Shown in pieces: positions 1,211 through 63,366 of a stretch of DNA of 64,000 nt (positions are counted from its first letter, which is position 1; every line of letters starts with the position of its first letter). The stretch comes from an uncultured Acidobacteriaceae bacterium (lineage in GTDB: Bacteria; Acidobacteriota; Terriglobia; Terriglobales; Acidobacteriaceae). The stretch is from the NCBI GenBank assembly GCA_903842065.1, contig CAIMKZ010000100.1:62001-126000 (forward strand). The letters are read 5' to 3'. A program made the position numbers and the translations under genes. The notes beneath the pieces were generated by a model that was not told the DNA's origin, ran no database searches, and saw only the letters and a program-made list of their open reading frames with translations.

Positions 1211-1216
1211 TACAAT
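1211..1216 (+). promoter_or_regulatory. -10-like TACAAT, probable leaderless start
   Basis: TACAAT ends exactly 6 nt before ATG 1223. Transcription would begin at or next to the A of the start codon. No Shine-Dalgarno sequence fits in between. The -35 region is weak. This spacing recurs at several other genes in the window. Confidence 0.6.
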
Positions 1217-1222
1217 CAATCC

Positions 1223-3373
1223 ATGGGCCTCTCTTCCCCGCTGCGCACGGTCCACGCGGTCTGCAATCACGATTGCCCGGACACGTGCGGAGTGCTAGTC
1301 ACAATCGACGCCAACGGCCGTGCCGTGAAGGTTGCCGGCGACCCTGCGCATCCTGTTACGCAGGGCTTTCTGTGCGGCAAGGTTGCCAAGTATCTTGACT
1401 TGGTCTACTCGCCGGACCGCGTGCTCTATCCGCTACGCCGCAAAAAGGGTGTGCCGAAGGGGCCGCTCGTGCGCGGGCGCGAGCTGGAGGCCTTTGAGCG
1501 CATAGGCTGGGATGAGGCTCTGGACGAGATCGCGGCGAAACTCAATGAAACGAGCGAGCGCTACGGCCCGGAGTCGATTCTGCCTTACAGCTATGCGGGC
1601 AACTCGGGCGTGCTTGGCTACGGGTCGATGGACCGGCGGTTCTTCCACCGCCTTGGCGCAAGCCGGCTGGACCGCACCATCTGCTCTGAGGCCGGGGGCG
1701 TGGCGTGGAACCTGGTCTACGGAAAAAAGCTCGGCGTTCCGACCGAAGACTTCAGCCACGCAAAGCTGATCGTTGCGTGGGGCGCGAACGTACACGGGAC
1801 AAATATTCACTTATGGCCGCAGATCGAAAAGGCCCGCCGCAACGGCGCGCGGCTGATCGTGATCGACCCTTACCGCACGCGCACAGCGGCTCTGGCTGAC
1901 TGGCACATCGCGATTCGGCCTGGCACGGACGCGGCTCTCGCGCTGGGCATGATGCACGTGATCCTTCGCGAGGCCCTCGAAGACCGCGAGTACATCGCCC
2001 ACATGACGGCAGGCTTCAGCGAGTTGGCCGAGCGCGTGAAAGAGTACACGCCACAGCGCGTGGCGGAGTGGACCGGCCTCACCCCGGCAGAGATTGAGCA
2101 GCTTGCGCGCGAGTACGCAACGGCGAAGCCTGCGGCGATCCGTCTGAACTACGGCGTGCAGCGCGCGGAGTACGGCGGCGCGGCGGTGCGGGCCATCGCC
2201 ATGCTGCCGGCCATCACCGGCGCGTGGAAGCATCGGGGCGGCGGAGCGCAGTTATCCACCTCGGGTGCCTTCGCGTGGAATAAACAAGTCTTGGAACGGC
2301 CCGACCTGCAACTCAAGTCTCCACTCGCCCGCGAGGCGCGGCTGGTCAATATGTCTGCGCTCGGCGAAGCATTGAAATGCAGGGATCAGGCTGGGGCGGA
2401 CGTTCATGCCCTCTTTGTCTACAACTCGAATCCCGCGGCGGTTGCGCCGAATCACAACGCGGTGCGAAGGGGCCTGGAACGCGCGAACCTGTTCACGGTG
2501 GTTCACGAGCTGTTCCTCACCGACACTACCGACTACGCCGACTACGTTCTGCCCGCGACCTCGTTTCTTGAGCACACCGACGTCGAGGGCGCGTACGGCC
2601 ACTACTTTGTGCAGCTCTCTCAACGTGCGATTGAACCACGCGGCGAGGCGCGATCGAATGTGTGGCTCTTTGGGCAGCTCGGCGTACGCATGGGCTTCAC
2701 CGAGCCGTGTTTCAAAGACAACGCCGAAGATCTGATAGCGCAGGCGCTGAACGTGGACGCAAACGGTCGCTCGCAAAGCCCGCAGATGGCTCACATCGCA
2801 TTGGCTGAGTTGCGCGAGCGCGGACACCTGCCGGTGGACTTCCATCGCGAGCCGGAAGCAGCACCGTTTCTGCCCTTCTCTTCCGGTCCGCTTACTACGC
2901 CTTCTGGCAAGGTGGAGTTCGCCTCGCCGTCTCTCGCCGCCGAGGGCCTCGATCCCCTGCCCGGATTTACTCCAGCCACAGAGTCGCGCTGGGGCGCGGA
3001 CGCGGCACGGTTCCCGCTCGAGTTGCTGGCGCGCAAGGCGGACAACTATCTGAACTCGTCGTTCGCGGGTCTCGAAGGCCACCGGAAGATGGAGGCCGCG
3101 AACTGCCGGCGCATCGAACTGCATCCGGCCGACGCGGCTGCGCGCGGCATCGCGGATGGAGATCGCGTGCGAGTCGCAAACGATCGCGGCTCGATCGAAC
3201 TGATTGCAAGAGTGAATGCAAACCTGCCCACGGGAGTGGTGGCGGGCTGGCTCGACTGGCCCAAACTGCATCCGGAGGGGCGCAACATCAACGTCCTCAC
3301 CAGCGAGCGGCTGACCGACATCGGCGCGGGAGCCACATTCTACTCGGCATTGGTCGAAGTTAACAAAATCTAA
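1223..3373 (+). CDS. Molybdopterin oxidoreductase, DMSO reductase family, with 4Fe-4S site
   Basis: 716-aa cytoplasmic redox enzyme binding a bis-MGD molybdenum/tungsten cofactor. Four cysteines at residues 14, 18, 22 and 51 (CNHDC...C...C) fit the N-terminal 4Fe-4S cluster. Molybdopterin-binding stretches follow (GSMDRRF, AWGANVHGTN, IDPYRTRTA, YNSNPAAVAPN). The C-terminal dinucleotide-binding domain holds ADGDRVRVANDRG. There is no Tat signal. Substrate is unknown: formate dehydrogenase, thiosulfate reductase and related branches share these features, and no partner subunit is adjacent. The TTG at 1205 is a weaker start. ATG 1223 is chosen because TACAAT lies 6 nt upstream. The rhodanese gene follows after 32 nt and may be cotranscribed. 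Confidence 0.88.
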   Translation: MGLSSPLRTVHAVCNHDCPDTCGVLVTIDANGRAVKVAGDPAHPVTQGFLCGKVAKYLDLVYSPDRVLYPLRRKKGVPKGPLVRGRELEAFERIGWDEALDEIAAKLNETSERYGPESILPYSYAGNSGVLGYGSMDRRFFHRLGASRLDRTICSEAGGVAWNLVYGKKLGVPTEDFSHAKLIVAWGANVHGTNIHLWPQIEKARRNGARLIVIDPYRTRTAALADWHIAIRPGTDAALALGMMHVILREALEDREYIAHMTAGFSELAERVKEYTPQRVAEWTGLTPAEIEQLAREYATAKPAAIRLNYGVQRAEYGGAAVRAIAMLPAITGAWKHRGGGAQLSTSGAFAWNKQVLERPDLQLKSPLAREARLVNMSALGEALKCRDQAGADVHALFVYNSNPAAVAPNHNAVRRGLERANLFTVVHELFLTDTTDYADYVLPATSFLEHTDVEGAYGHYFVQLSQRAIEPRGEARSNVWLFGQLGVRMGFTEPCFKDNAEDLIAQALNVDANGRSQSPQMAHIALAELRERGHLPVDFHREPEAAPFLPFSSGPLTTPSGKVEFASPSLAAEGLDPLPGFTPATESRWGADAARFPLELLARKADNYLNSSFAGLEGHRKMEAANCRRIELHPADAAARGIADGDRVRVANDRGSIELIARVNANLPTGVVAGWLDWPKLHPEGRNINVLTSERLTDIGAGATFYSALVEVNKI

Positions 3374-3405
3374 CCGGCAAGAGCTAGAACACTGGGAGCG
3401 ATGCG

Positions 3406-3771
3406 ATGAATTGGACTTTCTACGTTGTTGTAATTGTTGTTATGGTTGCCGTTCTGCTGATGCGCCGGGGGCGTCAGATTACCGTGCAGTCGGCGCAGAC
3501 ACTGCTGCGCGAGGGCGCTACAGTCGTCGATGTGCGGACGGCGGGCGAGTTTGCTTCAGGCCATCTGCCCGGGGCCATCAACATTCCGCTGGACAGCATC
3601 GAGACAAAGCTACCGGCGCGGATTCCCGATCGCAACCAGACAATCCTGCTGCACTGTCAGACGGGGATGCGCTCCGGCATGGCGGCAAAGAAGCTGCGCG
3701 CTCTGGGCTACAACAACGTCCATAACATCGGCGGATACGCGCGTGCTGCAAATGTGGTGGGCGGAAAGTAG
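3406..3771 (+). CDS. Membrane-anchored rhodanese-like sulfurtransferase
   Basis: 121-aa protein: one N-terminal helix (about 5-19, YVVVIVVMVAVLLM), then a single rhodanese domain. The active-site loop is CQTGMRS with the catalytic cysteine at residue 84, and the CH2A-like VDVRTAGEFASGHLPGAINIP precedes it. It should carry persulfide sulfur on that cysteine at the inner face of the membrane. It starts 32 nt after the molybdopterin enzyme, and sulfur transfer to a molybdenum cofactor enzyme is a plausible but unproven link. An alternative role is general sulfide or cyanide handling. Confidence 0.85.
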   Translation: MNWTFYVVVIVVMVAVLLMRRGRQITVQSAQTLLREGATVVDVRTAGEFASGHLPGAINIPLDSIETKLPARIPDRNQTILLHCQTGMRSGMAAKKLRALGYNNVHNIGGYARAANVVGGK

Positions 3772-3811
3772 TCTCGCCCGGGCAAAACCGTCAGCATTAC
3801 CGGCAAAGCAA

Positions 3812-3842
3812 AACGCCCGGAGTCTCTTAAACTCCGGGCGTT
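3812..3842 (-). terminator. Terminator between convergent genes
   Basis: Perfect 12-bp stem (AACGCCCGGAGT / ACTCCGGGCGTT) with a 7-nt loop. On the minus strand it is followed by TTGCTTT, so it best serves the Ig-like gene. It may also stop the rhodanese transcript. Confidence 0.75.
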
Positions 3843-3870
3843 GCCGTGTGTATTCGTTTTTCTGCTTGCT

Positions 3871-4842
3871 CTACTTGACCGTAAGCACCAGGGTGGTGGA
3901 GGCGGCGAGCGCGGAAACGCCGTCGCTGGACTGGCCCGTAAGCGTGACCGTGTACGTGCCCGAAGGTGTTGCCGGAGTAACTGGTGGTCCGTGGTTGTAG
4001 TAGTGGTAGAGCGGGCTGCACGCCGTCATGCCGAGCGAGGCAACCAGTGCCACAAGCGCCATGAGCGCCATGCGCTGGAGCCAGCGGCGGCGGCGAGCGC
4101 CAAAGGCGAGTCCACCAAGAGCCAGAAAGCCGGGCAGCAGAACCGCCCACGCAACGGGATTCGAACTCCGCGGTCCGGGCGTCATCTGCGCGGTTGCGGC
4201 CACAGTCTGAATCACCAGCAGGCTCACCGGCGGGCAGGCCGAGGGCAGCGAGCCGGAGGCGCAACTGGTTGGCGTGGAGGGCAGAATCTCAACGTTGTCC
4301 GGCGCAAACGAGCAGGTGGAGTTGCTGGGCAACCCCGAGCAGGAGAGCGTTACAAACATCGGCGCGCTGAGCGACCCGTTGTTTACCGGCGTCACGGTCA
4401 CGCTGAGCGAGCCGCTCTGCCCGGCTGTCAGTGACAGCGGCAAGGTGGAGGGAGATATGGCCGCAACAGAAAGCGTGTAGCCGGGTACGCCGCCGGGGAT
4501 CATCGGCTGCGCAATGGCCGAGGCCGATACCGCGGGCTGGTGCGTGGCGTCGCCGGCATAGACGGCGCGGAGCGTGTGCTCGCCCGAGGCGAGCGTGAGC
4601 TTAACCTGCGCCTGGCCTTCGGCGTCGAGCAGGGCCTCGCCGAGGATGCGATCGCCTTCCTCAATGCTGACCACGCCCGAGGCGGGGTGGCTCAGAACGT
4701 CGCTCACCGACACCGTTGCCCGGCCGCTGCCGTCCACGGTCAGGGTGGCGCGAGTGGCCGTTTGCTGCGCGTAGGCTGCCGGGATCAGTATTGCCACTCC
4801 CAGCGCTGCCATCCATTCAAGCCGCAATTTGCGGCGGATCAT
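3871..4842 (-). CDS. Exported Ig-like repeat protein with internal membrane anchor
   Basis: 323-aa protein with an N-terminal signal (RRKLRLEWMAALGVAILIPAAYAQQ). Next comes a bacterial Ig-like 3 type domain (LTVDGSGRATVSVSD to YAGDATHQPAVS), then a second beta domain (YTLSVAAISPSTLPLSLTAG). A hydrophobic stretch GFLALGGLAF, the charged ARRRRWLQR and a second hydrophobic stretch ending in MTACS follow, then a last short Ig-like strand (GTYTVTLTGQ). Acidobacterial Ig-like cell-surface proteins commonly end this way. Function is unknown, probably envelope or adhesion. Start taken at ATG 4842, where the signal peptide begins; the frame extends to 4920. Confidence 0.7.
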   Translation of the reverse strand: MIRRKLRLEWMAALGVAILIPAAYAQQTATRATLTVDGSGRATVSVSDVLSHPASGVVSIEEGDRILGEALLDAEGQAQVKLTLASGEHTLRAVYAGDATHQPAVSASAIAQPMIPGGVPGYTLSVAAISPSTLPLSLTAGQSGSLSVTVTPVNNGSLSAPMFVTLSCSGLPSNSTCSFAPDNVEILPSTPTSCASGSLPSACPPVSLLVIQTVAATAQMTPGPRSSNPVAWAVLLPGFLALGGLAFGARRRRWLQRMALMALVALVASLGMTACSPLYHYYNHGPPVTPATPSGTYTVTLTGQSSDGVSALAASTTLVLTVK

Positions 4843-5072
4843 GCCTGTCACGTGCACCTGCTCCAACTGCCCAAAACTAGAGGGCTGACACAAGGACTCA
4901 TCCGGGCAGACACTGCCCACCCGATCTATTGTCCCAGACCATTATTGTATCCGGCGGGACCGCTGACGGGCCATTCCCTCACGCCGCCGGCCCACCCCTT
5001 GATCCCGGCCTCTGCTCCCCTGGTCCCCCAGTCCCTGCTTTTCAGCTATGCTGTCTGTTTGAGGGAATCGTC

Positions 5073-6287
5073 ATGACTCAAACTGCTCCCCGCCCCCAAC
5101 TCGCCCACCTTACCGCCGTTCTAAACGACCTGCGCGCCAAAGGAACCCACTTCCGCCTGCGCGTGCTTGAAGATCAGCAGGCCCCGGTGTGCCACTACGA
5201 CGGCAAGCAAGTCATTAATCTGGCCAGCAACAACTATCTTGGCCTCGCAAATCATCCCCGGCTGATCGAGGTGGCCGTGGCCGCCACCGAGGCCTTCGGC
5301 GTAGGCTCCGGAGCCGTCCGCACCATCGCCGGAACCATGCGCATCCACATGGAGCTCGAAGAAAAGATCGCCGCCTTCAAAAATGTCGAAGCCTGCGTCG
5401 TCTTCCAGAGCGGGTTCACGGCCAACGCGGGAACCGTAAGCTCGATCCTCGGCAAAGAGGATTACATTATCTCGGACGAGCTGAACCACGCCAGCATCAT
5501 CGATGGCGCAAGGCTCTCCCGCGCCAACATCAAGGTGTTCCGGCATAAGGATGTCGCGCACTGCGAAGAGATTCTCGCCGAACTGGCTAACAAGCCGGGC
5601 CACAAGCTCGTCATCACCGACGGCGTCTTTTCAATGGACGGTGACATCGGCCCCGTCGACAAGCTCGCTCTTCTGGCTGAAAAATACGGCGCCATCATGA
5701 TGGTGGACGACGCGCACGCCTCGGGCGTTCTGGGGCGCAACGGGCGCGGCAGCGTGGACCACTTCAAGATGCACGGCAAGGTGGATGTGCAGGTGGGCAC
5801 GCTGTCAAAGGCCATCGGCGCGCTGGGCGGCTACGTCTGCGGCAGCAAAGATTTAATTGACTACCTCTATCACCGCGCGCGTCCGTTCCTGTTTTCGACC
5901 TCGCATCCGCCGTCGGTTGCGGCAACGTGCATCGAGGCCTTCAACATTCTGGAGCAGGAGCCGGAGCGCATCGAGCGGCTGTGGACGAACACGCGGTACT
6001 TCCAGGCCGAGCTCAAGCGCGTGGGCTTCAATATCGGCGGCATCAACACGCCGGCAACCGAGACGCCGATTACGCCGCTGATCGTAGGCGACGGCGGCAA
6101 GACGATGGAGTTCTCGCGCGCGCTCTTCGACGAGGGCGTCATGGCGACTGGAATCGCGTTCCCGACGGTGCCGGAAGGTAAGTCGCGCATTCGCATGATC
6201 CTCACCAGCGAACACACCAAGGCCCAGCTCGACCAGGCGCTCGAAACATTGGAACGTGTCGCCAAGAGGATGGGGATTCTACAATAG
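5073..6287 (+). CDS. kbl: PLP-dependent glycine C-acetyltransferase (KBL) family enzyme
   Basis: 404-aa alpha-oxoamine synthase, fold type I PLP enzyme. It shows the family's SNNYLGL (52-58), GSGAVRTIAGT, SDELNHASIIDG, VDDAHASGVLGRNGRG (around 211-226) and the PLP lysine K246 in VGTLSKAIGALGG. Best fit is 2-amino-3-ketobutyrate CoA ligase, which makes glycine and acetyl-CoA from the threonine breakdown product. BioF and serine palmitoyltransferase are sister families and cannot be fully excluded. No threonine dehydrogenase is adjacent. ATG 5073 follows a GAGGG ribosome site; the upstream extension to 4929 lacks family similarity. ruvA begins 6 nt after the stop. Confidence 0.82.
   Translation: MTQTAPRPQLAHLTAVLNDLRAKGTHFRLRVLEDQQAPVCHYDGKQVINLASNNYLGLANHPRLIEVAVAATEAFGVGSGAVRTIAGTMRIHMELEEKIAAFKNVEACVVFQSGFTANAGTVSSILGKEDYIISDELNHASIIDGARLSRANIKVFRHKDVAHCEEILAELANKPGHKLVITDGVFSMDGDIGPVDKLALLAEKYGAIMMVDDAHASGVLGRNGRGSVDHFKMHGKVDVQVGTLSKAIGALGGYVCGSKDLIDYLYHRARPFLFSTSHPPSVAATCIEAFNILEQEPERIERLWTNTRYFQAELKRVGFNIGGINTPATETPITPLIVGDGGKTMEFSRALFDEGVMATGIAFPTVPEGKSRIRMILTSEHTKAQLDQALETLERVAKRMGILQ
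6280..6285 (+). promoter_or_regulatory. Possible internal -10 for ruvA inside the kbl stop region
   Basis: TACAAT overlaps the last codons and stop of kbl (CTA CAA TAG) and ends 8 nt before the ruvA ATG. It could give ruvA its own nearly leaderless transcript. It may equally be coincidence, since the bases are coding. Confidence 0.35.
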
Positions 6288-6293
6288 GCAGCA

Positions 6294-6887: not shown

Positions 6888-6988
6888 AAACAGCTTTTAG
6901 CTCTTAGCTTCTAGCTTCTAGTTGTGTTTGTGGCGAGAATAGTCTGAGGATATTCTTCAAGGCTGAATTTCATCGCAAGGGTGAGTAG

Positions 6989-10372: not shown

Positions 10373-10378
10373 TACAAT
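10373..10378 (+). promoter_or_regulatory. -10-like TACAAT of the antitoxin gene, leaderless geometry
   Basis: TACAAT ends 6 nt before ATG 10385. There is no Shine-Dalgarno sequence. Confidence 0.6.
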
Positions 10379-10384: not shown

Positions 10385-10621
10385 ATGGAGCACTCCTTCG
10401 ACGAGGTCCGCCAGTTTGCCAGCGAGTTGCCTGAAGAGCAGCGGCTCATTCTCGCCAACACCCTGCTCGAAAGCCTCACCGAGGAAGCCGCCGACGCCGA
10501 GTTGGCAGCGGCCTGGGATAAAGAGATCGCGCTCCGCGTTGCTGAACTCAAGGCTGGAGCCGCTGCCACCTGTTCCTTCGAGGAACTGGCAACCGATCTG
10601 CGGGCGATCGCTCGTCGATGA
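10385..10621 (+). CDS. Addiction module antitoxin, TIGR02574-like
   Basis: 78-aa acidic protein of the family named putative addiction module component. It has the helical pattern FDEVRQFASELPEEQRLILANTLLESL and the conserved AAWDKEIALRVAELKAG, followed by a C-terminal toxin-binding tail (CSFEELATDLRAIA). It would neutralise the RelE/ParE-type toxin encoded next. Stop and toxin start overlap by 4 nt (ATGA), the usual coupling for such pairs. The start is fixed by TACAAT 6 nt upstream; an extended frame to 10286 has no family similarity. Confidence 0.9.
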   Translation: MEHSFDEVRQFASELPEEQRLILANTLLESLTEEAADAELAAAWDKEIALRVAELKAGAAATCSFEELATDLRAIARR

Positions 10622-10923
10622 GATCCCTGCGGGTCGACGAACGCGCCCGCCGCGAAGCTAAAGAGGCGGCTGAGTGGTACGCCGAACGCGGCGCCGGTTT
10701 ATCCGGCCTGTTCACAGATGAACTTCTGGCAGCTATTTCCTTCGCGCACTCACATCCGCTCCAATGTTCGCCTTATCTGCACGGAACTCGCCGGGCGTTC
10801 CTCAAGAAGTTCCCCTATTTCGTCGTACTCCTTGAGTTCAAAGACACTGTGTACATTGTTGCGGTAGCTCACGCCAAGCGGAGGGAGGGCTTCTGGATGG
10901 GGCGGGTAACGGAGAAGCAATAG
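10618..10923 (+). CDS. RelE/ParE family toxin
   Basis: 101-aa basic protein with the family pattern: N-terminal RVDERARREAKEAAEWYAER helices, then LHGTRRAFLKKFPYFVVLLEFKDTVYIVAVAHAKRREGFW. The FPY and AHAKRREGFW blocks are the conserved core strands and C-terminal segment. The target is either mRNA at the ribosome (RelE) or gyrase (ParE); the sequence does not settle this, though the fold branch and the TIGR02574 partner are usually annotated ParE/RelE. Translationally coupled to the antitoxin. Confidence 0.88.
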   Translation: MRSLRVDERARREAKEAAEWYAERGAGLSGLFTDELLAAISFAHSHPLQCSPYLHGTRRAFLKKFPYFVVLLEFKDTVYIVAVAHAKRREGFWMGRVTEKQ

Positions 10924-12840: not shown

Positions 12841-12867
12841 ACCTCAGCCCCCAAACACAAATCGCGC

Positions 12868-12873
12868 TACAAT
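12868..12873 (+). promoter_or_regulatory. -10-like TACAAT before the ATA-start antitoxin frame
   Basis: TACAAT ends 6 nt before ATA 12880, the same hexamer and spacing as the antitoxin at 10385 and the oxidoreductase at 1223. The flanking GCGCTACAATC closely matches CCGCGCTACAATC at 10385, suggesting a shared ancestry or promoter. Confidence 0.55.
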
Positions 12874-12879
12874 CCAGCC

Positions 12880-13125
12880 ATAAGTCCCGACGCCCAACGA
12901 CTCCTCGAACAGGCCCGCCTCCTGCCGCCAGACCAGCGAGCCTGGCTGGTGGAAAGCCTCTTGAACGAAGACGACAGCGTCTCCGCCGCCGAGGTCGAAG
13001 CCGCCTGGGGCGATGAGATCAAGCGCCGCCTCGACGAGATCGACTCCGGCGCGGTCCAGATGATTCCACACGAAGAAGTCCTGGCTCGTCTCGACGCCCG
13101 CATTGCAAGCAAGCGGCAGCTTTAA
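12880..13125 (+). CDS. Second TIGR02574-like antitoxin, apparent ATA start, orphan
   Basis: The frame encodes about 81 residues with the same architecture as the 10385 antitoxin: RLLEQARLLPPDQRAWLVESLL, then VEAAWGDEIKRRLDEIDSG and a C-terminal VLARLDARIASKRQL. No ATG, GTG or TTG lies in frame upstream of the conserved part. ATA at 12880 sits exactly where a leaderless ATG would be, 6 nt after TACAAT. Either ATA (or ATT-class) initiation is used, or a recent ATG to ATA change silenced the gene. No toxin follows; hairpin repeats begin at once. Family assignment is firm, expression is not. Confidence 0.65.
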   Translation: MSPDAQRLLEQARLLPPDQRAWLVESLLNEDDSVSAAEVEAAWGDEIKRRLDEIDSGAVQMIPHEEVLARLDARIASKRQL

Positions 13126-13139
13126 AACACTTCCACTAC

Positions 13140-13375
13140 ACTCCGCGCCGTAGGCGCAACGGTTGTTAGCCCCGCGCTTCAGCGTGGCGAAAGCAAACAA
13201 AGAGCATGAAGATTGATAAAGAACCCACTGTTTTGAAAGGGCACGACTTTAGTCGTGCCGCTAAAGCCAGCTAAATAAACAGGGCTTTAGCCCCTGAGGG
13301 ATGGGCTTTGGGGTTTGTCAGCAGCCTGGAGCATGAAGAGTCCCGTAGGGGCGGCCGAGAATCTCCTTCCCAGCC
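13140..13375. repeat. Intergenic hairpin repeats (copies B and C)
   Basis: Two units. The first holds GCGCC-GTA-GGCGC (13145-13157) and CCGCGC-TTCA-GCGTGG (13172-13187). The second holds GGCACGACT-TT-AGTCGTGCC (13240-13259), CAGGGC-TTTA-GCCCCTG (13280-13296) and TCCC-GTA-GGGG (13341-13351). The GTA and TTTA/TTCA loops stay constant while the stems change with complementarity kept. No gene lies here. Confidence 0.75.
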
Positions 13376-13504
13376 CACGTCCCACGAATCACGCACCACG
13401 ATTCACGACGTGTTGCCGATAATTACCCCCATTTGTTGCACCCTGTAGATAGACCTCAATCAGGTGGAGGCAACATGACCGGAATCCAGAAAATCTCGCA
13501 ACCT

Positions 13505-13733
13505 CTTTATAATCTGCACTTGCGTTACAAGAAATACGTAAAACGTTTATTATCTACATCTTGCGAATGTTTCTCCACCATGCAATCCCGCATTTTCAAC
13601 TCTAGCCAACACGATAACTCTCAATTTATCAACAAGATAAAAATTAACCCCTTTAGAATCTGCACTTGCGAGGGTAAAAAAGGTAAACCGTTTATTTTCT
13701 GCACTTATGCGCATCCCGTGCAAAACTTGCACC
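13505..13733. promoter_or_regulatory. Array of TCTGCACTTGCG boxes, possible Lrp operators
   Basis: An AT-rich 230-bp stretch holds a near-duplicated module. The first copy has AATCTGCACTTGCG at 13511-13524 and TATCTACATCTTGCG at 13551-13565. The second has AATCTGCACTTGCG at 13657-13670 and TTTCTGCACTTATGCG at 13696-13711. A GTAAAACGTTTATT / GTAAACCGTTTATT segment precedes the second box of each. AACTTGCACC follows at 13724-13733. The same core recurs upstream of the adjacent Lrp gene. Binding by that regulator is inference. Confidence 0.5.
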
Positions 13734-13786: not shown

Positions 13787-14308
13787 TCACCCTTCCAGCA
13801 CATCCCTGAGCGCAAAGCTCGTCTCCAGCCGCCGCACCCCCGGCAACCGGCTCAGCTCGTTCTGGTGCAGGTGGCCGTAGTCGTCCATGCCGGAGACGCG
13901 CGCCACCAGAATGTAGTCGTACTGGCCGGCCAGCAGGTGGCAGCTCACGATGTCGTGGCAGCTCCTGACGCCCGCCTCAAAGGCGGCAAGCACCGGCGCC
14001 GACTGCCGGTCGAGAGTCACGCGGATGTAGACCGTGAGGGGCTTGCCCAGTTGCCGGTCGTCGATTACCGCACGGTAGCCGCGGATCGCCCCCGATGCCT
14101 CGAGCGCCTGAATCCGCCTGGAGGCTGCCGAGGCCGAAAGCCCTGCCGCCTCGCCCACTTCGTAGTTCGTCGCCCGGCCATTCTTCTCCAGATAGTGGAG
14201 AATCGCCGAGTCCAGCTCGTCCAAACCGGACTGGGTTGCAGGCTTGATCGGTTCTTTCGTCAGATCGTGCAATAAACCGTCTGATACATCACGATTCGTT
14301 CTCATCAT
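13787..14308 (-). CDS. Lrp/AsnC family transcriptional regulator
   Basis: 173-aa regulator: an N-terminal extension, then a winged helix (LDELDSAILHYLEKNGRATNYEVGEAAGLSASAASRRIQALEASGAIRGYRAVID) and a RAM ligand-binding domain (TVYIRVTLDRQ, CHLLAGQYDYILVARVSGMDDY). These proteins bind amino acids and regulate amino-acid catabolism as octamers on multiple sites. It is divergent from ald, encoding alanine dehydrogenase, and Lrp-type regulators of ald are known in other phyla, so control of ald by alanine is a sound inference. TGCAC boxes lie on both sides. Confidence 0.92.
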   Translation of the reverse strand: MMRTNRDVSDGLLHDLTKEPIKPATQSGLDELDSAILHYLEKNGRATNYEVGEAAGLSASAASRRIQALEASGAIRGYRAVIDDRQLGKPLTVYIRVTLDRQSAPVLAAFEAGVRSCHDIVSCHLLAGQYDYILVARVSGMDDYGHLHQNELSRLPGVRRLETSFALRDVLEG

Positions 14309-30839: not shown

Positions 30840-30883
30840 GGCCGGAGGACCGTTCTTCTCAATGGGAAGAACGGTTCCCGGCC
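30840..30883 (+). terminator. Terminator after the DUF5666-like gene
   Basis: Two stacked stems, GGCCGG/CCGGCC outside and CCGTTCTTC/GAAGAACGG inside, followed by TGAATTGTTTTG. Confidence 0.8.
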
Positions 30884-30899
30884 TGAATTGTTTTGTGTA

Positions 30900-30928
30900 T
30901 TGACATTTATATTATGTATACATAACAT
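30900..30928 (+). promoter_or_regulatory. Promoter with embedded palindromic operator
   Basis: Consensus -35 TTGACA (30900-30905), 17-bp spacer and -10 TAACAT (30923-30928), which ends 6 nt before the GTG at 30935. A perfect 14-bp palindrome TTATGTATACATAA (30912-30925) fills the spacer and touches the -10. A dimeric repressor there would block RNA polymerase. Autorepression by the XRE protein is the natural inference. Confidence 0.7.
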
Positions 30929-30934
30929 TATGTC

Positions 30935-31222
30935 GTGCAGGAAAATAGCAAGACTCTCGGTCCCGGAGAAAGCGGAATCTACAACCGCATCGCAGTCCTG
31001 CGCGCCGAGCGCGGCACGAGCCGCCAGCAACTGGCCGAGGCCGTTGGCGTGAACTATCAGACGATTGGCTTTTTGGAGCGCGGCGACTACGGGCCGAGCC
31101 TGAAGCTGGCCTTTCAGATCGCCGAGTACTTTTCGCTACCCGTCGAGGCGGTTTTTTCGACGCAGCCTTTCACGCCACTCAGTGTGCAGGTCTACGGCCC
31201 CAATTCAGGAGGATCAAAATGA
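30935..31222 (+). CDS. XRE family regulator of a three-gene membrane-protein operon
   Basis: 95-aa DNA-binding protein with a Cro/C1-type helix-turn-helix (IYNRIAVLRAERGTSRQQLAEAVGVNYQTIGFLERGDYGPSLKLAFQIAEYFSLPVEAVF). It resembles the small XRE proteins often found before a membrane-protein gene. Start is GTG 30935: it lies 6 nt after the -10, leaderless, and no in-frame ATG precedes the domain. The C-terminal tail (TPLSVQVYGPNSGGSK) overlaps the next gene by 4 nt. Likely autoregulated through the 14-bp palindrome in its promoter. Confidence 0.85.
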   Translation: MQENSKTLGPGESGIYNRIAVLRAERGTSRQQLAEAVGVNYQTIGFLERGDYGPSLKLAFQIAEYFSLPVEAVFSTQPFTPLSVQVYGPNSGGSK

Positions 31223-32369: not shown

Positions 32370-33608
32370 CTAGCTGATCAACGCGGCCTTCGCCCGCTTG
32401 CCCAACCGCACTACCAACCGCGCAGGCAGCGTCGGAGCCTGAATCGTCATCGACTCCACCACTGAGCCGTCGATCTTCACTGCCTTCTCGGCGATCTTGC
32501 GGTTGGCCTCTGCTCCGCTGGTGGCAAGCTTCAACTGAACCAGCAGTTTGGGCACGCGCAACTGGCCGTCGGGGCCGGCAACGTCGGCAAGAGCAACGGC
32601 AACTTCTTCGAGATCCTCGGCCGCTTCCTTCTGCTGAAACATCCGCGCCCAGTTCTCGTCGGCGCTTTGAGCAGCGGCTTCTCCGTGGAAGCCGGCTACG
32701 ATGGTGCGCGCCAGCTTTTTCTTGGTCTCCATCGGATGCAGAGTCCCGGCCGCAACCTCCGCGCGCATGGCGTCGATCTCGGACTGCTTGAGATCGGTGA
32801 GCAGGAGCCAGTACTTCCACATCAGCTCGTCACTGATCGACATCAGCTTGCCGTACATCTCAGAGGGCGGCTCGTTGATGCCGACTGCATTCCCCAACGA
32901 TTTGGACATCTTCTGCACGCCGTCGAGGCCTTCGAGGATCGGCGTCATGAGGACGATCTGCGGCTTCTGGCCGTAGTGGCGTTGGAGCTCGCGGCCGCAG
33001 AGCAGGTTGAACTTCTGATCGGTGCCGCCGAGTTCGACGTCGCATTCAAGCGCAACCGAGTCGTAGCCTTGCATCACGGGATAGAGCAGCTCGTGGAGGC
33101 TGATGGGCTGTTCGGCGTTGAAGCGCTTCGAGAAGTCGTCGCGCTCAAGCATCTGGCTCACCGTAAAGTGCGCCGTAAGCCGGATCGTTCCCTCGTAGCC
33201 GAGTTTGCCGAGCCACTCGGAGTTGTAGCGAACCTCAGTCACCGATTGGTCGAGGATGCGGAAGACCTGCTGCTTGTAGGTCTCAGCGTTCACGTCGATC
33301 TGTTCGCGCGTCAGCGGCTTGCGGGTCACGTTGCGGCCTGTGGGGTCGCCGATTAGCGCCGTGAAGTCGCCCACCAGGAAGATGACCGTGTGGCCCAACT
33401 GCTGAAAGTGGCGCAGCTTGCGCATCAGCACCGTGTGGCCGAGGTGCAGGTCTGGAGCCGTGGGGTCAAAGCCTGCCTTGATGCGCAGCGGGCGGCCAAT
33501 CGTGCGGCTCAACTCCAAACGCTCGCGGAGGTCGCTGGTGCGGATGATCTCCGCCGCGCCCTTCTCAAGCAGATCCATCTGTTCGTCTACGGGTAGAAAA
33601 GTGCTCAT
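32370..33608 (-). CDS. tyrS: Tyrosyl-tRNA synthetase
   Basis: 412-aa class I aminoacyl-tRNA synthetase charging tRNA-Tyr. The ATP site has HLGH in [15 protein letters not shown] and KMSKS in [10 protein letters not shown]. The C-terminal S4 RNA-binding domain ([30 protein letters not shown]) is present. It is the TyrZ-like branch rather than the E. coli type, judged from HLGH and the long linker. ATG 33608 is chosen as the family start; TATACT lies 10 nt upstream on the minus strand. Confidence 0.96.
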
Positions 33609-33645
33609 GGGTGATTTCAGTATAAATTTGCGCCCCGCGCAGCCC

Positions 33646-35425: not shown

Positions 35426-35431
35426 TATCTT
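35426..35431 (+). promoter_or_regulatory. -10-like TATCTT, leaderless geometry
   Basis: TATCTT ends 6 nt before ATG 35438. No Shine-Dalgarno sequence is present. Confidence 0.5.
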
Positions 35432-48178: not shown

Positions 48179-48184
48179 CACAAT
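48179..48184 (+). promoter_or_regulatory. -10-like CACAAT, leaderless geometry
   Basis: CACAAT ends 6 nt before ATG 48191. No Shine-Dalgarno sequence. Confidence 0.45.
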
Positions 48185-53005: not shown

Positions 53006-53011
53006 TATCTT
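53006..53011 (+). promoter_or_regulatory. -10-like TATCTT before the DUF2461 gene
   Basis: TATCTT ends 7 nt before ATG 53019. It supports that start over the upstream one at 52923. Confidence 0.5.
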
Positions 53012-55856: not shown

Positions 55857-55889
55857 GGCGCGGCCAAAAGAGCGTCGAGGGCAATCTGC

Positions 55890-58268: not shown

Positions 58269-58292
58269 CGGCTTCCCGTTCATGGGAAGCCG
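58269..58292 (-). terminator. Terminator after prolyl oligopeptidase
   Basis: Perfect 9-bp stem CGGCTTCCC / GGGAAGCCG with loop GTTCAT. On the minus strand TTTCTTTGTGTTTT follows. Confidence 0.85.
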
Positions 58293-58317
58293 CTCAGAAA
58301 CATCCTCGCGCCGCTAA

Positions 58318-60444
58318 CTACTTCTGCGCGCTGCCGCTCTCGGCCCACAGAAACGCCATCTGGTCGGCCTGGTCCTCGATGAGCTGTTCGATGCCGACGC
58401 CGCTCGAGTGGCCCCCGCCCATGCCATAGTGCAGCAGGATGGGCTTTCCGCTGGTGCTCGATGCCTGCATCAGCGCCGCCATCTTCCGCGCATGCAGAGG
58501 ATCGACGCGCGTGTCCGATGAACCGGTGAAGAAGAGAATCGCCGGATAGTCCGCGCGCTTCTTCACGTTCTGGTAAGGCGAGTACTTCAACAGATAGCCG
58601 ACCTGATCGGCGTTGTCCGACGAGCCGTACTCGGTAACCCAGTATGCTCCCTTCTCGAACTTCTGATAGCGCAGCATGTCCAGCAGCGGATAGCCGCACA
58701 CAATCGCCGAGAACAGCTCCGGCCGCTGCGTCATCGCCGCGCCCATCAGCAATCCGCCGTTCGAGCGGCCGGTGATGGCGAAGTGCTCGGCCGATGTGTA
58801 CTTGTTCGCGATCAGATACTCGGCCGCCGCCTCAAAGTCGTCAAAGACATTCTGCTTGTGGCTGAACATCGCCTGCTCGTGCCATTTTTCGCCGTACTCG
58901 CTGCCGCCGCGCAGGTTGGGCAGCGCAAACCAGCCGCCCTGCTCAAGCCACCACGCCCACATCGGATTCCACGCCGGCGTCTCGCTCACGTCGAAGCCGC
59001 CGTAGCCGGTCATCAGCAATCGCTCGCTTCCGTCGAGCTTCAGCCCCTTCTTCCCGGCGATGAACATCGGTACGCGCGTGCCGTCCTTGGATTGAAAGAA
59101 GACCTGCCGCACTTCGTAGTCGTCTGGATTCATTGGAACCTTCGGCGCGGCAAACACCTCGCGTTTACCTGTCGTCGTATCCAGCCGGTAGATCGTGCCC
59201 GGTGCCGTAAACGTCTCGAAGCTGTAGAACCCGTAGCGGTCCGTGGTGCGCCCCGCAACTCCGCTGGCAGATCCGATGCTGCCATAGTCGATGGTTCCAG
59301 TAGGCTTGCCGTCGAGCGTATAGATCTGTGTTTCGGTCTTCACGTCGTGCATGCGATTGACGTAAAGCTTGTGCCCGACGATCGAGAAGCCGTCGATGGG
59401 GTCGGCGCCCTCGGCCACGATGCGAGTCCAGTAGTCCGGCATGATGCCCGGATCGGCCTTGTAGATGGCGCCGTTCGGCGTCTTGTAGTCGGTCTTGACG
59501 TACCACGTTCCGCGGTCGTAGTCGACCGAGAAGCGCGAGTCGATGCCCCAGGTAAGCACGTCAAAGTACGAGCCCTGCTTGGTGAGATCGCGATACACGA
59601 TATCCACCCGCTTGGCCGGAACGCCGCGATCGATCTGCACCACCAGATAATGCCCGTCGTCGGTAATCCACGCTGAAAACAGATCGGCCGGCCCCAGCAG
59701 TTCGCCGCGAAACTCGCGGCCGAAGAGCAGTGTGTCCTGCGCGTTCCGCGAGCCCAGAACGTGCTGGTAGAGCAGCGTGCCCTTCTCGTTGGTGCGCGTG
59801 TAGTAGATGCTCTTGGCGTCAAGCGCAAAGGTGACCGAGTAATATGTGCCCGCCGGCAGCTCATCGATGAGAGGCTTGCCTGTCTTCAAATCCCAGAAGC
59901 GCACGGCGGTTTCATCCGCGCCACCCTCGCGCACTTCGTAAGCCATTAGCCCGCCGTCGCGCGAGATATCGGCGATGTGAACCGAAGTGTTGGTGCTCTT
60001 CGAAAACGCAGCGGGATCGATAAGACGCTTGTCTTTGCCCGCCCAGCCCGCGCGCATGTAGATAGAGGCCTGTCCTTCGCCGGAGAGGCGCTTTTGAAAA
60101 AAGTAGTTTTCGCCGCGCGCGATGGGCATGGACCACACCGTCACCTGCTGAAGCGCCGTAAGATCGTCCACGATCTGCGGCCGAATCTTCGCCTGATCCA
60201 TATAGCGCTTCGTGTACGTGTTCTGGTCGTCGATGTATTTTTTGGTTTCGGCGCTCTGCGCGTCTTCGAGCCAGCGATAGTTGTCCACGACCTTCGTGCC
60301 CGAGTAGTTGTCGGTGACCGGTGCAACGTCAACCTTCGGCGGAGCGGGAAGTGTGATGCCCGAACGGCCGCGAATCGTTTGCGCGGATGCGATTGCACAC
60401 CCCGCCAGGATCAACAAACATACCCAACCACAAGTCCGCTGCAT
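58318..60444 (-). CDS. Exported prolyl oligopeptidase, S9A family
   Basis: 708-aa serine peptidase with a signal peptide (CGWVCLLILAGCAIASAQ). A seven-bladed propeller precedes the alpha/beta hydrolase domain. The catalytic triad: Ser in AITGRSNGGLLMG, Asp in GSSDTRVDPLHARK and His in GMGGGHSSGVG. N-terminal DNYRWLEDAQSAET is typical of the family. It cuts short proline-containing peptides, probably in the periplasm. GGAGG precedes the ATG. Confidence 0.95.
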   Translation of the reverse strand: MQRTCGWVCLLILAGCAIASAQTIRGRSGITLPAPPKVDVAPVTDNYSGTKVVDNYRWLEDAQSAETKKYIDDQNTYTKRYMDQAKIRPQIVDDLTALQQVTVWSMPIARGENYFFQKRLSGEGQASIYMRAGWAGKDKRLIDPAAFSKSTNTSVHIADISRDGGLMAYEVREGGADETAVRFWDLKTGKPLIDELPAGTYYSVTFALDAKSIYYTRTNEKGTLLYQHVLGSRNAQDTLLFGREFRGELLGPADLFSAWITDDGHYLVVQIDRGVPAKRVDIVYRDLTKQGSYFDVLTWGIDSRFSVDYDRGTWYVKTDYKTPNGAIYKADPGIMPDYWTRIVAEGADPIDGFSIVGHKLYVNRMHDVKTETQIYTLDGKPTGTIDYGSIGSASGVAGRTTDRYGFYSFETFTAPGTIYRLDTTTGKREVFAAPKVPMNPDDYEVRQVFFQSKDGTRVPMFIAGKKGLKLDGSERLLMTGYGGFDVSETPAWNPMWAWWLEQGGWFALPNLRGGSEYGEKWHEQAMFSHKQNVFDDFEAAAEYLIANKYTSAEHFAITGRSNGGLLMGAAMTQRPELFSAIVCGYPLLDMLRYQKFEKGAYWVTEYGSSDNADQVGYLLKYSPYQNVKKRADYPAILFFTGSSDTRVDPLHARKMAALMQASSTSGKPILLHYGMGGGHSSGVGIEQLIEDQADQMAFLWAESGSAQK

Positions 60445-60517
60445 GGAATGCCTCCGAGCAAAGGATATCGTCTGAGACTCCGCTCATGCAGCGGATAAGC
60501 CCCGTCAACGACTGCCC

Positions 60518-63352
60518 TCACCCCGTATTTCTCAGCCCCGCCGCTATCCCGCTGATCGTCGCGGCAATCGCGCGGTTCACTTCCGGAGTGTCCTCTCCGC
60601 CACGCTTGCGCCTCAGCATCTCCACCTGGATCAGGTGCATCGGGTCCACGTACGGATTCCTCAGCCGGATCGAGCGGGCCAGCACCGGGTTCGTCTCGAG
60701 CAGCTCTTTCTGACCCAGAATCCGCAGCAGCGCCCCCACCGTGCGTTCGAACTCGTCCTTCATCGTCGCAAAGACCCGCCCGGCCAGCGCCGCATCCTCC
60801 ACCAGCGTGGCGTAGTGGCGCGCCGTGGCCAGATCCGCCTTGGCCAGCGCCATCTCCACGTTGCGCAGCAGGTCTATGAACAGCGGAAACTCTCGCGCCA
60901 TCGTCTGCAACAGCTCCAGCTTCTCGGGCCGCATGGTCAGAAACTTATCGAGCGCGTAGCCCACGCCGAACCACGCCGGCACCATCAGCCGCGACTGGTT
61001 CCATCCAAACACCCACGGAATCGCGCGCAGATCGGCGATCTTTGTTGACGACCCGCGCCTTGCCGGCCGCGAACCGATCTTCGCATTCTCCAGCTCGCTA
61101 ACCGGCGTCGACTGCTCAAAGTACGCAATCACCTCAGGGTCGTCGAGAATCTGCCTGCGGTAACAGCTAAAGGCTATCTCCGACAGCTCGTCGAGCGCCG
61201 CCTCCCACTCCCGCTTCAGCATGCCCGTGAAGTGCGCCTCGGGATTGCGCGCATTGGGCCGCGCCAGCGCATCCAGCGACGCCGCGATCATCAGCTCCAG
61301 ATTGCGCTCGGCCAGAATCACGTCGCCGTACTTGAAGTTCAGCACCTCGCCCTGCTCGGTGATACGGATCTGCCCATCGAACGAGTGCATCGGCTGCGCA
61401 AAGATCGCCCTGTGAGTCGGACCTCCACCGCGACCCACTGTCCCGCCTCTCCCGTGGAACAGCCGCAGCCGTACCCCCGCTCCACGCGCCGCCTCGTGCA
61501 GTGCACGATGTGCGCGAAAGATCTCCCAGGTCGAGGTCAGCATCCCGCCGTCCTTGTTCGAGTCCGAGTAGCCCAGCATCACCTCCTGCCAGTTCCCCCA
61601 GCTCGCCATCAGTGCGCGATAGTCTTCGCGGCTCCACAGTTCTCGGCAGATCGCCGGCGCATTGCGCAGATCTTCGATCGACTCAAACAGTGGCACCGGA
61701 ATGATCCCTGGATCTTCCTCGCCGTCGCCTTCCACGCGGAGTCCGGCCAGCCGCGCCAGCCGCACCACCGTCAACACATCCTCCACCGTCGCCGCGCCGC
61801 TGATCACATACTGCCGGATCGACTCCGGCGCGCAGCCCTGCTTCACACGGCCGATCGCGCGGAAGGTCTCCAGCACATTCGCCGTCTCCGGCCTCATCGC
61901 TCCGCTCAGTTTCTCGGCCAGCGAGCCCCCGATCGTATCTTCAAGAGCCGCCGCATGAACCCGTGCATGCTGCCTTACGTCGAGCGTGTGCAGGTGGAAT
62001 CCGAAGGTCCGCGCCTCCAGAATCAGCGGATCGACGAGCGTGCCCGCGATGCGGCTTCCGCGGTTGGCCGACAGCGACTCCCGCATCAGCTCCAGATCCC
62101 CGACAAACTCCGCCGCGCAACGGTAAGGGCTCAGCGCCTGGGCCAGCATCTCGCCTCCGGCTGAGATCGCATAAGCCGTCACCGGCAGCGCCGCGCGATC
62201 CGACCCACCGCCCAGCGTCCGCCGCAACCGCGCCTCCACGCAGATCGCAAACCGCCGATAGAGCTCTGCTTCGTACTGCTCTCCAAAGACCTCTGGAGTC
62301 TGCGCCTGGGCAAGGTACCCATCGAGCCTCTCTAGCAGAGCCGTACTCACTCCCTGCTGCCCGGCGCTGGTCGTCAGCAGGTCGATCACAGCATTCAGCC
62401 GCTGCTGGTAGTGGTGGAACAGGTGTCCCTGCGCCAGCTCCACCGCCTCACGAGTTACGTCCGGCGTCACAAACGGATTGCCGTCCCGGTCGCCCCCGAT
62501 CCACGATCCGAAGCCCAGCACCCGAGGCAGGTCCACGGCCTCAATCTCTACTTCGTACACTGCGCGGATCGCGCCGGCAATCTCGCCGTAGACGGCCGCC
62601 GCGCTCGCAAAGATCGAGACATCGTAGTAATCGAGCCCCGTCTTGATCTCGTCATAGACCGTCGGCCGTTGCGACCGCACCTCGTCGGTCTGCCACAGCG
62701 CCGTAATCTCGGCCATCAGCAGCTCTTCGAGCCGCCGTATCGCTTCTGTGGGCAAAGGAATGCGGTCCAGCCTGCCCAGGTACTCGACGATCCGACGCCG
62801 CTTCACCATCACCGTCCGCCGCGCCGTCTCCGTAGGATGCGCTGTAAACACCGGCGTCACCAGCACCCGGCTCAGGTACTCAAGCGCCTCGGCCGGCCCA
62901 ATGCCCACCTCGCGCATCGCGGTTAGCGTACCCTCGATCGATCCGCGCTGCCGACCGGCCCGACCGCTCAACTGCAAAGCCATGCGCCGCCGCTTGCGGT
63001 GGTTTGTCTCGGCCAGATTGGTCAGCTCGAAGAAGAATGCGAAGGCCCGCGTCAGCAGCGTGGCCTGCTCCACAGCCAGCGACTGAACCAGCCTGGCCGC
63101 CATCTGGCCCTGCCGACCGGCCTCAGCGCCATCGCCGCGCCCCTCGGCCTCGCGCCGCGCAATCGTGCCCTGCCGCAGCGCTTCTACCTGCGCATAAAAC
63201 TCGTCGCCGGCCTGCTCGCGCAGCACAGCCCCCAACAGCGTTCCCAGCGAGCGCACATCCCGCCGCAAAGGCGCGTCTTTCAACTCGCCCGTCTGCGCCT
63301 CAAGCTCCGCCAGACGCTGCTGCCAGTCCTCCGGGTTCCATAAAAGAGCCAT
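60518..63352 (-). CDS. ppc: Phosphoenolpyruvate carboxylase
   Basis: 944-aa anaplerotic enzyme making oxaloacetate from PEP and bicarbonate. Catalytic His in VFTAHPTETARRT, the PEP site GYSDSNKDGGMLTS, the FHGRGGTVGRGGGP loop, and RITEQGEVLNFKYG are all present. The C-terminus ends GLRNTG, the canonical end. Length is slightly above E. coli's 883. On the minus strand GATAAT lies 8 nt before the ATG. Confidence 0.97.
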   Translation of the reverse strand: MALLWNPEDWQQRLAELEAQTGELKDAPLRRDVRSLGTLLGAVLREQAGDEFYAQVEALRQGTIARREAEGRGDGAEAGRQGQMAARLVQSLAVEQATLLTRAFAFFFELTNLAETNHRKRRRMALQLSGRAGRQRGSIEGTLTAMREVGIGPAEALEYLSRVLVTPVFTAHPTETARRTVMVKRRRIVEYLGRLDRIPLPTEAIRRLEELLMAEITALWQTDEVRSQRPTVYDEIKTGLDYYDVSIFASAAAVYGEIAGAIRAVYEVEIEAVDLPRVLGFGSWIGGDRDGNPFVTPDVTREAVELAQGHLFHHYQQRLNAVIDLLTTSAGQQGVSTALLERLDGYLAQAQTPEVFGEQYEAELYRRFAICVEARLRRTLGGGSDRAALPVTAYAISAGGEMLAQALSPYRCAAEFVGDLELMRESLSANRGSRIAGTLVDPLILEARTFGFHLHTLDVRQHARVHAAALEDTIGGSLAEKLSGAMRPETANVLETFRAIGRVKQGCAPESIRQYVISGAATVEDVLTVVRLARLAGLRVEGDGEEDPGIIPVPLFESIEDLRNAPAICRELWSREDYRALMASWGNWQEVMLGYSDSNKDGGMLTSTWEIFRAHRALHEAARGAGVRLRLFHGRGGTVGRGGGPTHRAIFAQPMHSFDGQIRITEQGEVLNFKYGDVILAERNLELMIAASLDALARPNARNPEAHFTGMLKREWEAALDELSEIAFSCYRRQILDDPEVIAYFEQSTPVSELENAKIGSRPARRGSSTKIADLRAIPWVFGWNQSRLMVPAWFGVGYALDKFLTMRPEKLELLQTMAREFPLFIDLLRNVEMALAKADLATARHYATLVEDAALAGRVFATMKDEFERTVGALLRILGQKELLETNPVLARSIRLRNPYVDPMHLIQVEMLRRKRGGEDTPEVNRAIAATISGIAAGLRNTG

Positions 63353-63360
63353 GTGCTTTG

Positions 63361-63366
63361 ATTATC
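63361..63366 (-). promoter_or_regulatory. -10-like GATAAT of ppc
   Basis: On the minus strand GATAAT ends 8 nt before the ppc ATG, with no Shine-Dalgarno sequence between. Confidence 0.45.

What the first reader, a model, noticed from the sequence alone, without database searches (positions are those of the whole stretch)
1211..63366. Recurrent -10 hexamer exactly 6 nt before start codons: widespread leaderless transcripts
Six genes have a -10-like hexamer ending exactly 6 nt before the start codon: TACAAT at 1211, 10373 and 12868; TAACAT at 30923; TATCTT at 35426; CACAAT at 48179. TATCTT at 53006 is 7 nt away. TACAAT at 6280 and GATAAT at 63361 (minus) are 8 nt away; TACACT at 1100 (minus) 9; TATACT at 33619 (minus) 10. 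The closest cases have no Shine-Dalgarno sequence. Since RNA polymerase starts about 6-7 nt after the -10, these mRNAs would begin at the start codon. The genes vary in function (redox enzyme, toxin-antitoxin, acetyltransferase, phosphatase). Other genes here have strong SD sites, so two initiation modes coexist.
Basis: partly seen in the sequence, partly recalled or inferred. Interest (0 to 1): 0.8.

Follow-up and report, generated by a model that had tools for sequence, protein, structure and literature searches.

The report
Promoters placed directly before start codons
In this soil acidobacterium about one gene in eight appears to be read from a messenger RNA that begins at, or within a few bases of, its start codon: a known way of starting translation, predicted before for this phylum, that still needs to be measured in it.

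Summary
The observation mostly holds. The pattern is not chance. In 928 genes from 1.31 Mb of the same genome, a mixture model with a flat gap prior found a TAnAaT hexamer peaking 6 nt before the start and almost absent at 0-5 nt; 12.6% of genes have it at 6-10 nt, and five of five shuffled controls lack the peak. It behaves as a promoter -10 box: it is rare between close co-directional genes (1 of 126, against 45 of 304 divergent genes), it has a weak -35 signal, and at gap 6 the base before the start is a pyrimidine in 41 of 47 genes. In relatives, six window gene families keep it at 6-11 nt in half to nine tenths of homologues. Site 48179 fails, 63361 is unresolved, 12868 has no standard start codon. 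Best reading: leaderless or very-short-leader mRNAs beside Shine-Dalgarno genes. The kind is known: Zheng et al. 2011 predicted 13.3% leaderless genes in Acidobacteria. Transcript data are missing.

The parts
1211..1216 (+). -10 hexamer TACAAT, 6 nt before ATG 1223 (molybdopterin oxidoreductase 1223-3373)
   Evidence: TA posterior 0.99; 23 of 29 homologues have TANNNT at gap 6-11, 14 at gap 6, SD core in 1
1223..3373 (+). predicted leaderless gene: molybdopterin oxidoreductase family
   Evidence: Pfam PF00384/PF01568/PF04879; start chosen also without the hexamer
10373..10378 (+). -10 hexamer TACAAT, 6 nt before ATG 10385 (antitoxin)
   Evidence: TA posterior 0.99 given this start, start posterior 0.70; the start is not chosen without the hexamer; same architecture in homologues of the related antitoxin at 12880
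10385..10621 (+). predicted leaderless antitoxin gene (PF09720), overlapping a ParE-like toxin gene at 10618-10923
12868..12873 (+). -10 hexamer TACAAT before an antitoxin frame that begins with ATA at 12880
   Evidence: the closest homologue found has ATG at this place (L163)
12880..13125 (+). orphan antitoxin frame (PF09720) without ATG/GTG/TTG before 12949; no matching toxin gene behind it
   Evidence: L163 has a ParE-family ORF at 1743-2042; its DNA alignment with the window ends at the antitoxin's end
30900..30905 (+). TTGACA, a -35 match 17 nt upstream of TAACAT
   Evidence: sequence read
30923..30928 (+). -10 hexamer TAACAT, 6 nt before GTG 30935 (HTH protein 30935-31222)
   Evidence: TA posterior 0.98; HTH_3; homologues not tested
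35426..35431 (+). -10 hexamer TATCTT, 6 nt before ATG 35438 (WcaF-like acetyltransferase)
   Evidence: TA posterior 0.90; only 7 of 29 homologues have TANNNT at gap 6-11, 21 of 29 have an SD core
53006..53011 (+). -10 hexamer TATCTT, 7 nt before ATG 53019 (DUF2461 protein)
   Evidence: TA posterior 0.84, start posterior 0.76; 13 of 24 homologues at gap 6-11
6280..6285 (+). -10 hexamer TACAAT, 8 nt before ATG 6294 (ruvA); overlaps the end of the upstream aminotransferase gene
   Evidence: TA posterior 0.92; 19 of 29 homologues at gap 6-11
1100..1105 (-). -10 hexamer TACACT, 9 nt before ATG 1090 (HIT-domain protein 752-1090)
   Evidence: TA posterior 0.99; 16 of 29 homologues at gap 6-11, SD core in 9
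33619..33624 (-). -10 hexamer TATACT, 10 nt before ATG 33608 (tyrS, 32370-33608): probably a leader of a few nt
   Evidence: TA posterior 0.88; TIGR00234; 26 of 29 homologues at gap 6-11, SD core in 1
48179..48184 (+). CACAAT, 6 nt before ATG 48191 (PAP2 phosphatase): not supported as leaderless
   Evidence: not TANNNT; model prefers GTG 48233 with SD, start posterior only 0.53; 0 of 28 homologues at gap 6-8, 4 of 28 at 6-11
63361..63366 (-). GATAAT, 8 nt before ATG 63352 (phosphoenolpyruvate carboxylase): undecided
   Evidence: not TANNNT; SD 0.61, TA 0.34; homologues not tested

Best explanation
The hexamers are the -10 boxes of ordinary housekeeping (sigma-70-type) promoters placed so close to the start codon that RNA polymerase begins the mRNA on the start codon (gap 6-7) or one to about five bases before it (gap 8-11). 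Such mRNAs have no Shine-Dalgarno site, so the ribosome would have to engage the start codon at the 5' end (leaderless initiation). Most other genes use leadered mRNAs with Shine-Dalgarno sites, and genes packed behind a co-directional neighbour rarely use the leaderless form. Shown here: the hexamer's sequence, its distance, its rarity between close co-directional genes, its recurrence in homologues. Inferred: the actual 5' ends, and how the ribosome starts.
For: Mixture model on 928 genes: motif T.76 A.87 n A.65 A/C T.92; gap learned from flat: 6 .257, 7 .147, 8 .089, 9 .113, 10 .062, each of 0-5 at most .005; also reached from one of four random initial motifs, the run with the best likelihood of the four. 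Five of five shuffled controls show no peak at 6-10 (share 0.07-0.16, flat would be 0.13, real data 0.67). Counts without a weight matrix and the whole-genome pattern count agree. Operon test, starts chosen without the hexamer: 1 of 126 genes starting <30 nt behind a co-directional gene has TANNNT at gap 6-10 (that one is ruvA of the window), against 17 of 133 at 30-100 nt, 23 of 310 at >=100 nt and 45 of 304 divergent genes. -35: TTGACA matches of >=5/6 at spacer 16-18 in 8 of 124. Pyrimidine at -1 for 41 of 47 gap-6 genes against 336 of 617 SD genes, P 5e-6, fitting a pyrimidine-purine initiation step on the start codon (recalled preference of bacterial RNA polymerase). Homologues with TANNNT at gap 6-11: moly 23/29, tyrS 26/29, antitoxin 18/26, HIT 16/29, DUF2461 13/24, ruvA 19/29, against 2/29 for the SD control gene AlaDH. 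In the oxidoreductase family the start chosen by alignment shifts by -12 to +6 codons and the hexamer mostly shifts with it.
Against: No transcript 5' ends. The -35 signal is weak: at >=4/6 it is not distinct from shifted frames (21 true, up to 21 at distant shifts), and at >=5/6 the neighbouring shifts +1 and +2, whose spacers overlap, also give 9 and 7. The joint model itself puts 4 of 126 close co-directional genes in the leaderless class. SD and -10 compete for the same bases, so their mutual exclusion is partly trivial. The pyrimidine excess is significant only at gap 6. WcaF homologues are mostly SD-led (21 of 29) and PAP2 gives no support; tyrS across the phylum is mostly not TA-led (4 of 26 at gap 6-11, SD core in 13 of 26). 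Three of four random starts of the model ended in other optima of lower likelihood. A pooled model on relatives' mreB neighbourhoods locked onto another motif.
Confidence: 0.88

Rival explanations
1. The hexamer is not a promoter but an AT-rich ribosome-binding element of the non-SD kind described for the Bacteroidetes group, on an mRNA with a leader.
For: Non-SD AT-rich ribosome sites are described in bacteria (PMC9581028, passages); the hexamer is tied to the start codon in distance.
Against: A ribosome site should also serve genes inside operons: 1 of 126 close co-directional genes has it (4 of 126 by the joint model) against 45 of 304 divergent genes. The sequence is the -10 consensus with a weak -35 and a pyrimidine before the start at gap 6.
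Confidence: 0.06
2. Chance: in 62% GC sequence the reader picked hexamers that happened to lie at similar distances.
For: Two of the 11 do not fit TANNNT, one has no standard start codon, and one (48179) finds no support.
Against: Peak at gap 6 in 928 genes and in a whole-genome count free of gene calling (21 against a mean of 5.6 per other gap); no peak in five shuffled controls; distance kept in homologues of six families.
Confidence: 0.02
3. The hexamers are real promoters but translation starts further downstream, behind an internal SD site, in a leadered mRNA.
For: For 48191 the model prefers GTG 48233 with SD; start choice is uncertain for some genes, 10385 among them.
Against: At gap 6 the transcription start would coincide with an in-frame ATG or GTG in many unrelated genes, which is unexplained unless translation starts there. 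Homologous starts mostly align with the window's start in ruvA, tyrS and the antitoxins while the upstream DNA has diverged.
Confidence: 0.04

Closest known systems
TA-led (leaderless) bacterial genes of Zheng et al. 2011 (PMC3160421; outline, passages and section 7 seen)
   Same: TANNNT about 12 bp upstream of the start counted from its first T, i.e. a 6-nt gap; its Table 2 lists such genes in 3 of 3 Acidobacteria genomes, on average 13.3% (9.7-19.4); here 12.6% of genes at gap 6-10.
   Different: That study was in silico on genomes available in 2010; this is another genome, with operon, -35, initiator-base and homologue tests.
Leaderless transcriptome of Mycobacterium tuberculosis, Cortes et al. 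2013 (PMC3898074, passages seen)
   Same: TANNNT -10 motif; 26% of genes with a primary start site leaderless; toxin-antitoxin modules (32 of 37 gene pairs) and tRNA synthetases (7 of 14) often leaderless; here an antitoxin family and tyrS are among the clearer cases.
   Different: Measured transcripts there, prediction only here; another phylum; no conserved -35 motif was found there, a weak one is seen here.
Deinococcus-Thermus leaderless genes (as reported in PMC3160421, section 7)
   Same: TANNNT signal near the start, read as leaderless genes.
   Different: About 40% of genes there against about 13% here.

Membership tests
Bacterial leaderless (TA-led) genes | TANNNT -10 box about 6 nt before the start codon, above background | tested here: met
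Bacterial leaderless (TA-led) genes | no Shine-Dalgarno site in the same genes | tested here: met
   24 of 141 genes without a likely SD site, against 0 of 363 strong-SD genes, have TANNNT at gap 6; partly trivial because both signals compete for the same bases
Bacterial leaderless (TA-led) genes | found at first or single genes of transcription units, rare inside operons | tested here: met
   1 of 126 close co-directional genes (4 of 126 by the joint model) against 45 of 304 divergent genes
Bacterial leaderless (TA-led) genes | mRNA 5' end at or within 5 nt of the start codon | not testable with these tools
   needs 5'-end mapping; indirect support from pyrimidine at -1 at gap 6
Bacterial leaderless (TA-led) genes | translation of the leaderless mRNA | not testable with these tools
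   needs ribosome profiling or reporters
Bacteroidetes-type AT-rich non-SD ribosome site | signal present also before genes inside operons | tested here: not met
sigma-70-type promoter | -10 near TATAAT with a -35 near TTGACA about 17 nt upstream | tested here: inconclusive
   -10 met; -35 enriched at >=5/6 (8 of 124) but not at >=4/6; clear at 30900/30923

The most novel reading that the evidence does not exclude
In Acidobacteriaceae the leaderless genes form a conserved set that can be turned up or down together through the state of the ribosome, with toxin-antitoxin modules and some aminoacyl-tRNA synthetases placed in it, as reported in the unrelated M. tuberculosis. The antitoxin frame at 12880 would then be an extreme member that starts on AUA at an mRNA's 5' end.
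Probability: 0.08. Interest if true: 0.65.

Novelty: new member of a known kind. Interest (0 to 1): 0.35.

Why it matters
Gene callers tuned to Shine-Dalgarno sites may misplace starts in such genomes. A conserved leaderless set in a common soil phylum would also give a test case outside Actinobacteria and Deinococcus for how bacteria translate leaderless mRNA and why toxin-antitoxin and some tRNA-synthetase genes use it.

Tried and rejected
Coding-only start calls on the first 636 kb gave a diluted signal; replaced by the joint model. Three of four random motif starts went to other optima of lower likelihood. Pooled model on 80 mreB-neighbourhood loci of relatives: it locked onto another motif (consensus TTCGCT, gap 7), which I take to come from homologous copies of the same genes, so it was not used; the raw count there (26 of 813 at gap 6) agrees but the genes are not independent. 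Function bias: Pfam families of 113 leaderless-class and 114 randomly drawn strong-SD proteins show no clear concentration in the 25 families listed for each; two HigB-like toxins in the first list, no such toxin family in the second. The first set is the 114 of 124 leaderless-class genes with TA posterior >0.6, minus one (window 12844-13200, minus) dropped as a spurious gene opposite the antitoxin frame; that call stays in the 928-gene counts.

Literature: searched for leaderless transcripts, start-site mapping or dRNA-seq together with Acidobacteria names. Of their hits I saw only the listings (20 of 198, 2 of 2, 15 of 185, 1 of 1, 0, 0), and none listed is, by title, a start-site map of an acidobacterium; only this open-access library was searched. 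Papers opened for passages: PMC9581028, PMC5397173, PMC10783764, PMC9031893, PMC3898074; PMC3160421 also outline and section 7. Two papers were not held. Class Acidobacteriia has 45% SD genes in PMC10783764, lower than the 74% SD weight of my looser model.

Homologue rows: each search gave at most 30 loci, the best matches among more matching genomes (36 of 150; 37, 79, 78, 67, 64, 76 and 61 of 80; 38 of 41). The window's own copy was dropped from each count. Antitoxin: 27 of 30 loci gave a tblastn hit; the three without (L177, L181, L182) show TACAAT at gap 7, 7 and 6 and are not counted. DUF2461: 5, PAP2: 1 without a start codon in range, dropped. tyrS in the phylum: 28 new loci, 2 without a start, 26 counted, one of them from the same family. 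One search read minus-strand loci unturned; one search turned them. The operon test covers the 873 of 928 genes with a neighbour in the same stretch.

Full report
What the window is. It lies in a 4.09 Mb genome of 106 contigs. Its mreB is 95% identical to those of Acidobacteriaceae such as Terracidiphilus gabretensis and Occallatibacter savannae, so this is an acidobacterium of that family.

The observation. All 11 hexamers are present as stated. Ten are followed by ATG or GTG at the stated distance; TACAAT at 12868 is followed by ATA. Gene families: molybdopterin oxidoreductase (1223), RuvA (6294); PF09720 antitoxins (10385, 12880), HTH protein (30935), hexapeptide acetyltransferase (35438), PAP2 phosphatase (48191), DUF2461 (53019), HIT protein (1090); phosphoenolpyruvate carboxylase (63352); tyrosyl-tRNA synthetase (33608).

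Is it more than chance? In the window, 6 of 52 called genes have TANNNT at gap 6-8 with starts chosen without the hexamer, against 1.4 expected, P 0.003. I then called 928 genes in 1.31 Mb of the same genome (window plus 80 stretches, 32% of the genome) and fitted a mixture model in which each gene chooses a start codon and one of three classes (SD, TA, none), with a flat initial gap distribution. The TA motif became T.76 A.87 n A.65 A/C T.92. Its gap became 6 (.257), 7 (.147), 8 (.089), 9 (.113), 10 (.062), and almost nothing at 0-5. The SD class has weight 0.74, TA 0.19, none 0.07; adding the TA class raises the log-likelihood from 715 to 873. 12.6% of genes carry the motif at gap 6-10, and five of five shuffled-upstream controls gave no peak there. 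With starts chosen without the TA term, TANNNT is at gap 6 in 36 of 928 genes against 8.3 per position at gaps 12-38; in 141 genes without a likely SD site it is 24 against 0.96; in 363 strong-SD genes it is 0. A whole-genome count without gene calling gives TACAAT-N6-ATG 21 times against a mean of 5.6 for the other ten gaps between 2 and 12.

Promoter or ribosome site? Of 126 genes starting less than 30 nt behind a co-directional gene only 1 has TANNNT at gap 6-10, and that one is the window's ruvA; the figures are 17 of 133 at 30-100 nt, 23 of 310 at 100 nt or more, and 45 of 304 for divergent genes. The joint model, which uses the hexamer, puts 4 of 126, 21 of 133, 35 of 310 and 59 of 304 in the leaderless class. 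Among 124 leaderless-class genes TTGACA matches of at least 5/6 occur 8 times at spacer 16-18; shifts +1 and +2, with overlapping spacers, give 9 and 7, other shifts 0-4; at 4/6 there is no clear contrast. The site at 30900/30923 is a full TTGACA-17-TAACAT. The base before the start codon is a pyrimidine in 41 of 47 gap-6 genes, against 336 of 617 SD genes (P 5e-6), as a pyrimidine-purine start on the start codon would give; gaps 7-10 show no significant excess. The edge at gap 6 is where RNA polymerase geometry puts the first base on the start codon (recalled knowledge).

Homologues. Starts in homologues were chosen by alignment to the window protein, not by the hexamer. TANNNT at gap 6-11 was found in 23 of 29 oxidoreductase, 26 of 29 tyrS, 16 of 29 HIT, 13 of 24 DUF2461 and 18 of 26 antitoxin homologues, and in 19 of 29 ruvA homologues. 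Background in these six was 0.12 to 0.29 per position. The SD control gene, alanine dehydrogenase, had 2 of 29, with an SD core in 22. In the oxidoreductase family the start codon shifts by up to 12 codons and the hexamer mostly follows it. In the acetyltransferase family 7 of 29 have the hexamer and 21 have an SD core, so that gene seems to have changed mode. PAP2 gives 0 of 28 at gap 6-8 and 4 of 28 at 6-11. tyrS across the phylum is mostly not TA-led (4 of 26, SD core in 13). In tyrS of the family the gaps cluster at 8-11, so a leader of a few nt is more likely than none.

Single sites. Supported in this genome and in homologues: 1211, 53006, 6280, 1100. Supported by the joint model and by homologues of its sister antitoxin: 10373. 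Supported in this genome, no homologue test: 30923. Supported in this genome but weakly in relatives: 35426. Supported as very short leader: 33619. Not supported: 48179. Undecided: 63361. Special: 12868.

The 12868 case. The frame from 12880 encodes a PF09720 antitoxin (E 5e-13) but has no ATG/GTG/TTG before 12949, inside the domain. The closest homologue found has ATG there, the same -10 at the same distance, and a ParE-family ORF behind it (L163). In the window the DNA alignment stops at the antitoxin's end. The likeliest reading is an orphan antitoxin in decay, or an assembly error; initiation on AUA is possible but unproven.

What is known. Zheng et al. 2011 (PMC3160421; outline, passages and one section seen) found TANNNT signals about 12 bp upstream of starts, counted from the first T, and report leaderless genes in 207 of 953 bacterial genomes; Acidobacteria 3 of 3, average 13.3%. 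The present figure of 12.6% agrees. Cortes et al. 2013 (PMC3898074, passages seen) measured leaderless transcripts in M. tuberculosis with a TANNNT -10 motif, predominant among toxin-antitoxin pairs. The listings of six searches of the open-access library showed no start-site map of an acidobacterium. So this is a new instance of a known kind, well supported by sequence but without transcript evidence.

Noticed in passing
window 12880-13125: Antitoxin frame (PF09720) whose aligned start codon is ATA, with an intact -10 six nt upstream and no matching toxin gene behind it; the closest homologue found (L163) has ATG and a ParE-family ORF.
   Followed up: partly
L178 around position 1492 (homologue of the 12880 antitoxin): Another PF09720 homologue with TATAAT 6 nt before a non-start codon (AAG) where most others have ATG; a TTG lies directly behind the hexamer.
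   Followed up: no
window 13492-13709: Three to four degenerate direct repeats of about 25 nt (shared core around AATCTGCACTTGCG) between the orphan antitoxin and the 3' end of a minus-strand gene at 13787-14272.
   Followed up: no
window 30883-30940: AT-rich promoter with TTGACA-17-TAACAT and an overlapping palindrome TATGTATACATA before an HTH gene (sequence): possible self-repression site.
   Followed up: no
tyrS homologues L342-L371: TATACT or TATAAT-like hexamer mostly 8-11 nt before the start in family members, SD core in only 1 of 30: a short leader rather than none.
   Followed up: partly
   Followed up: no
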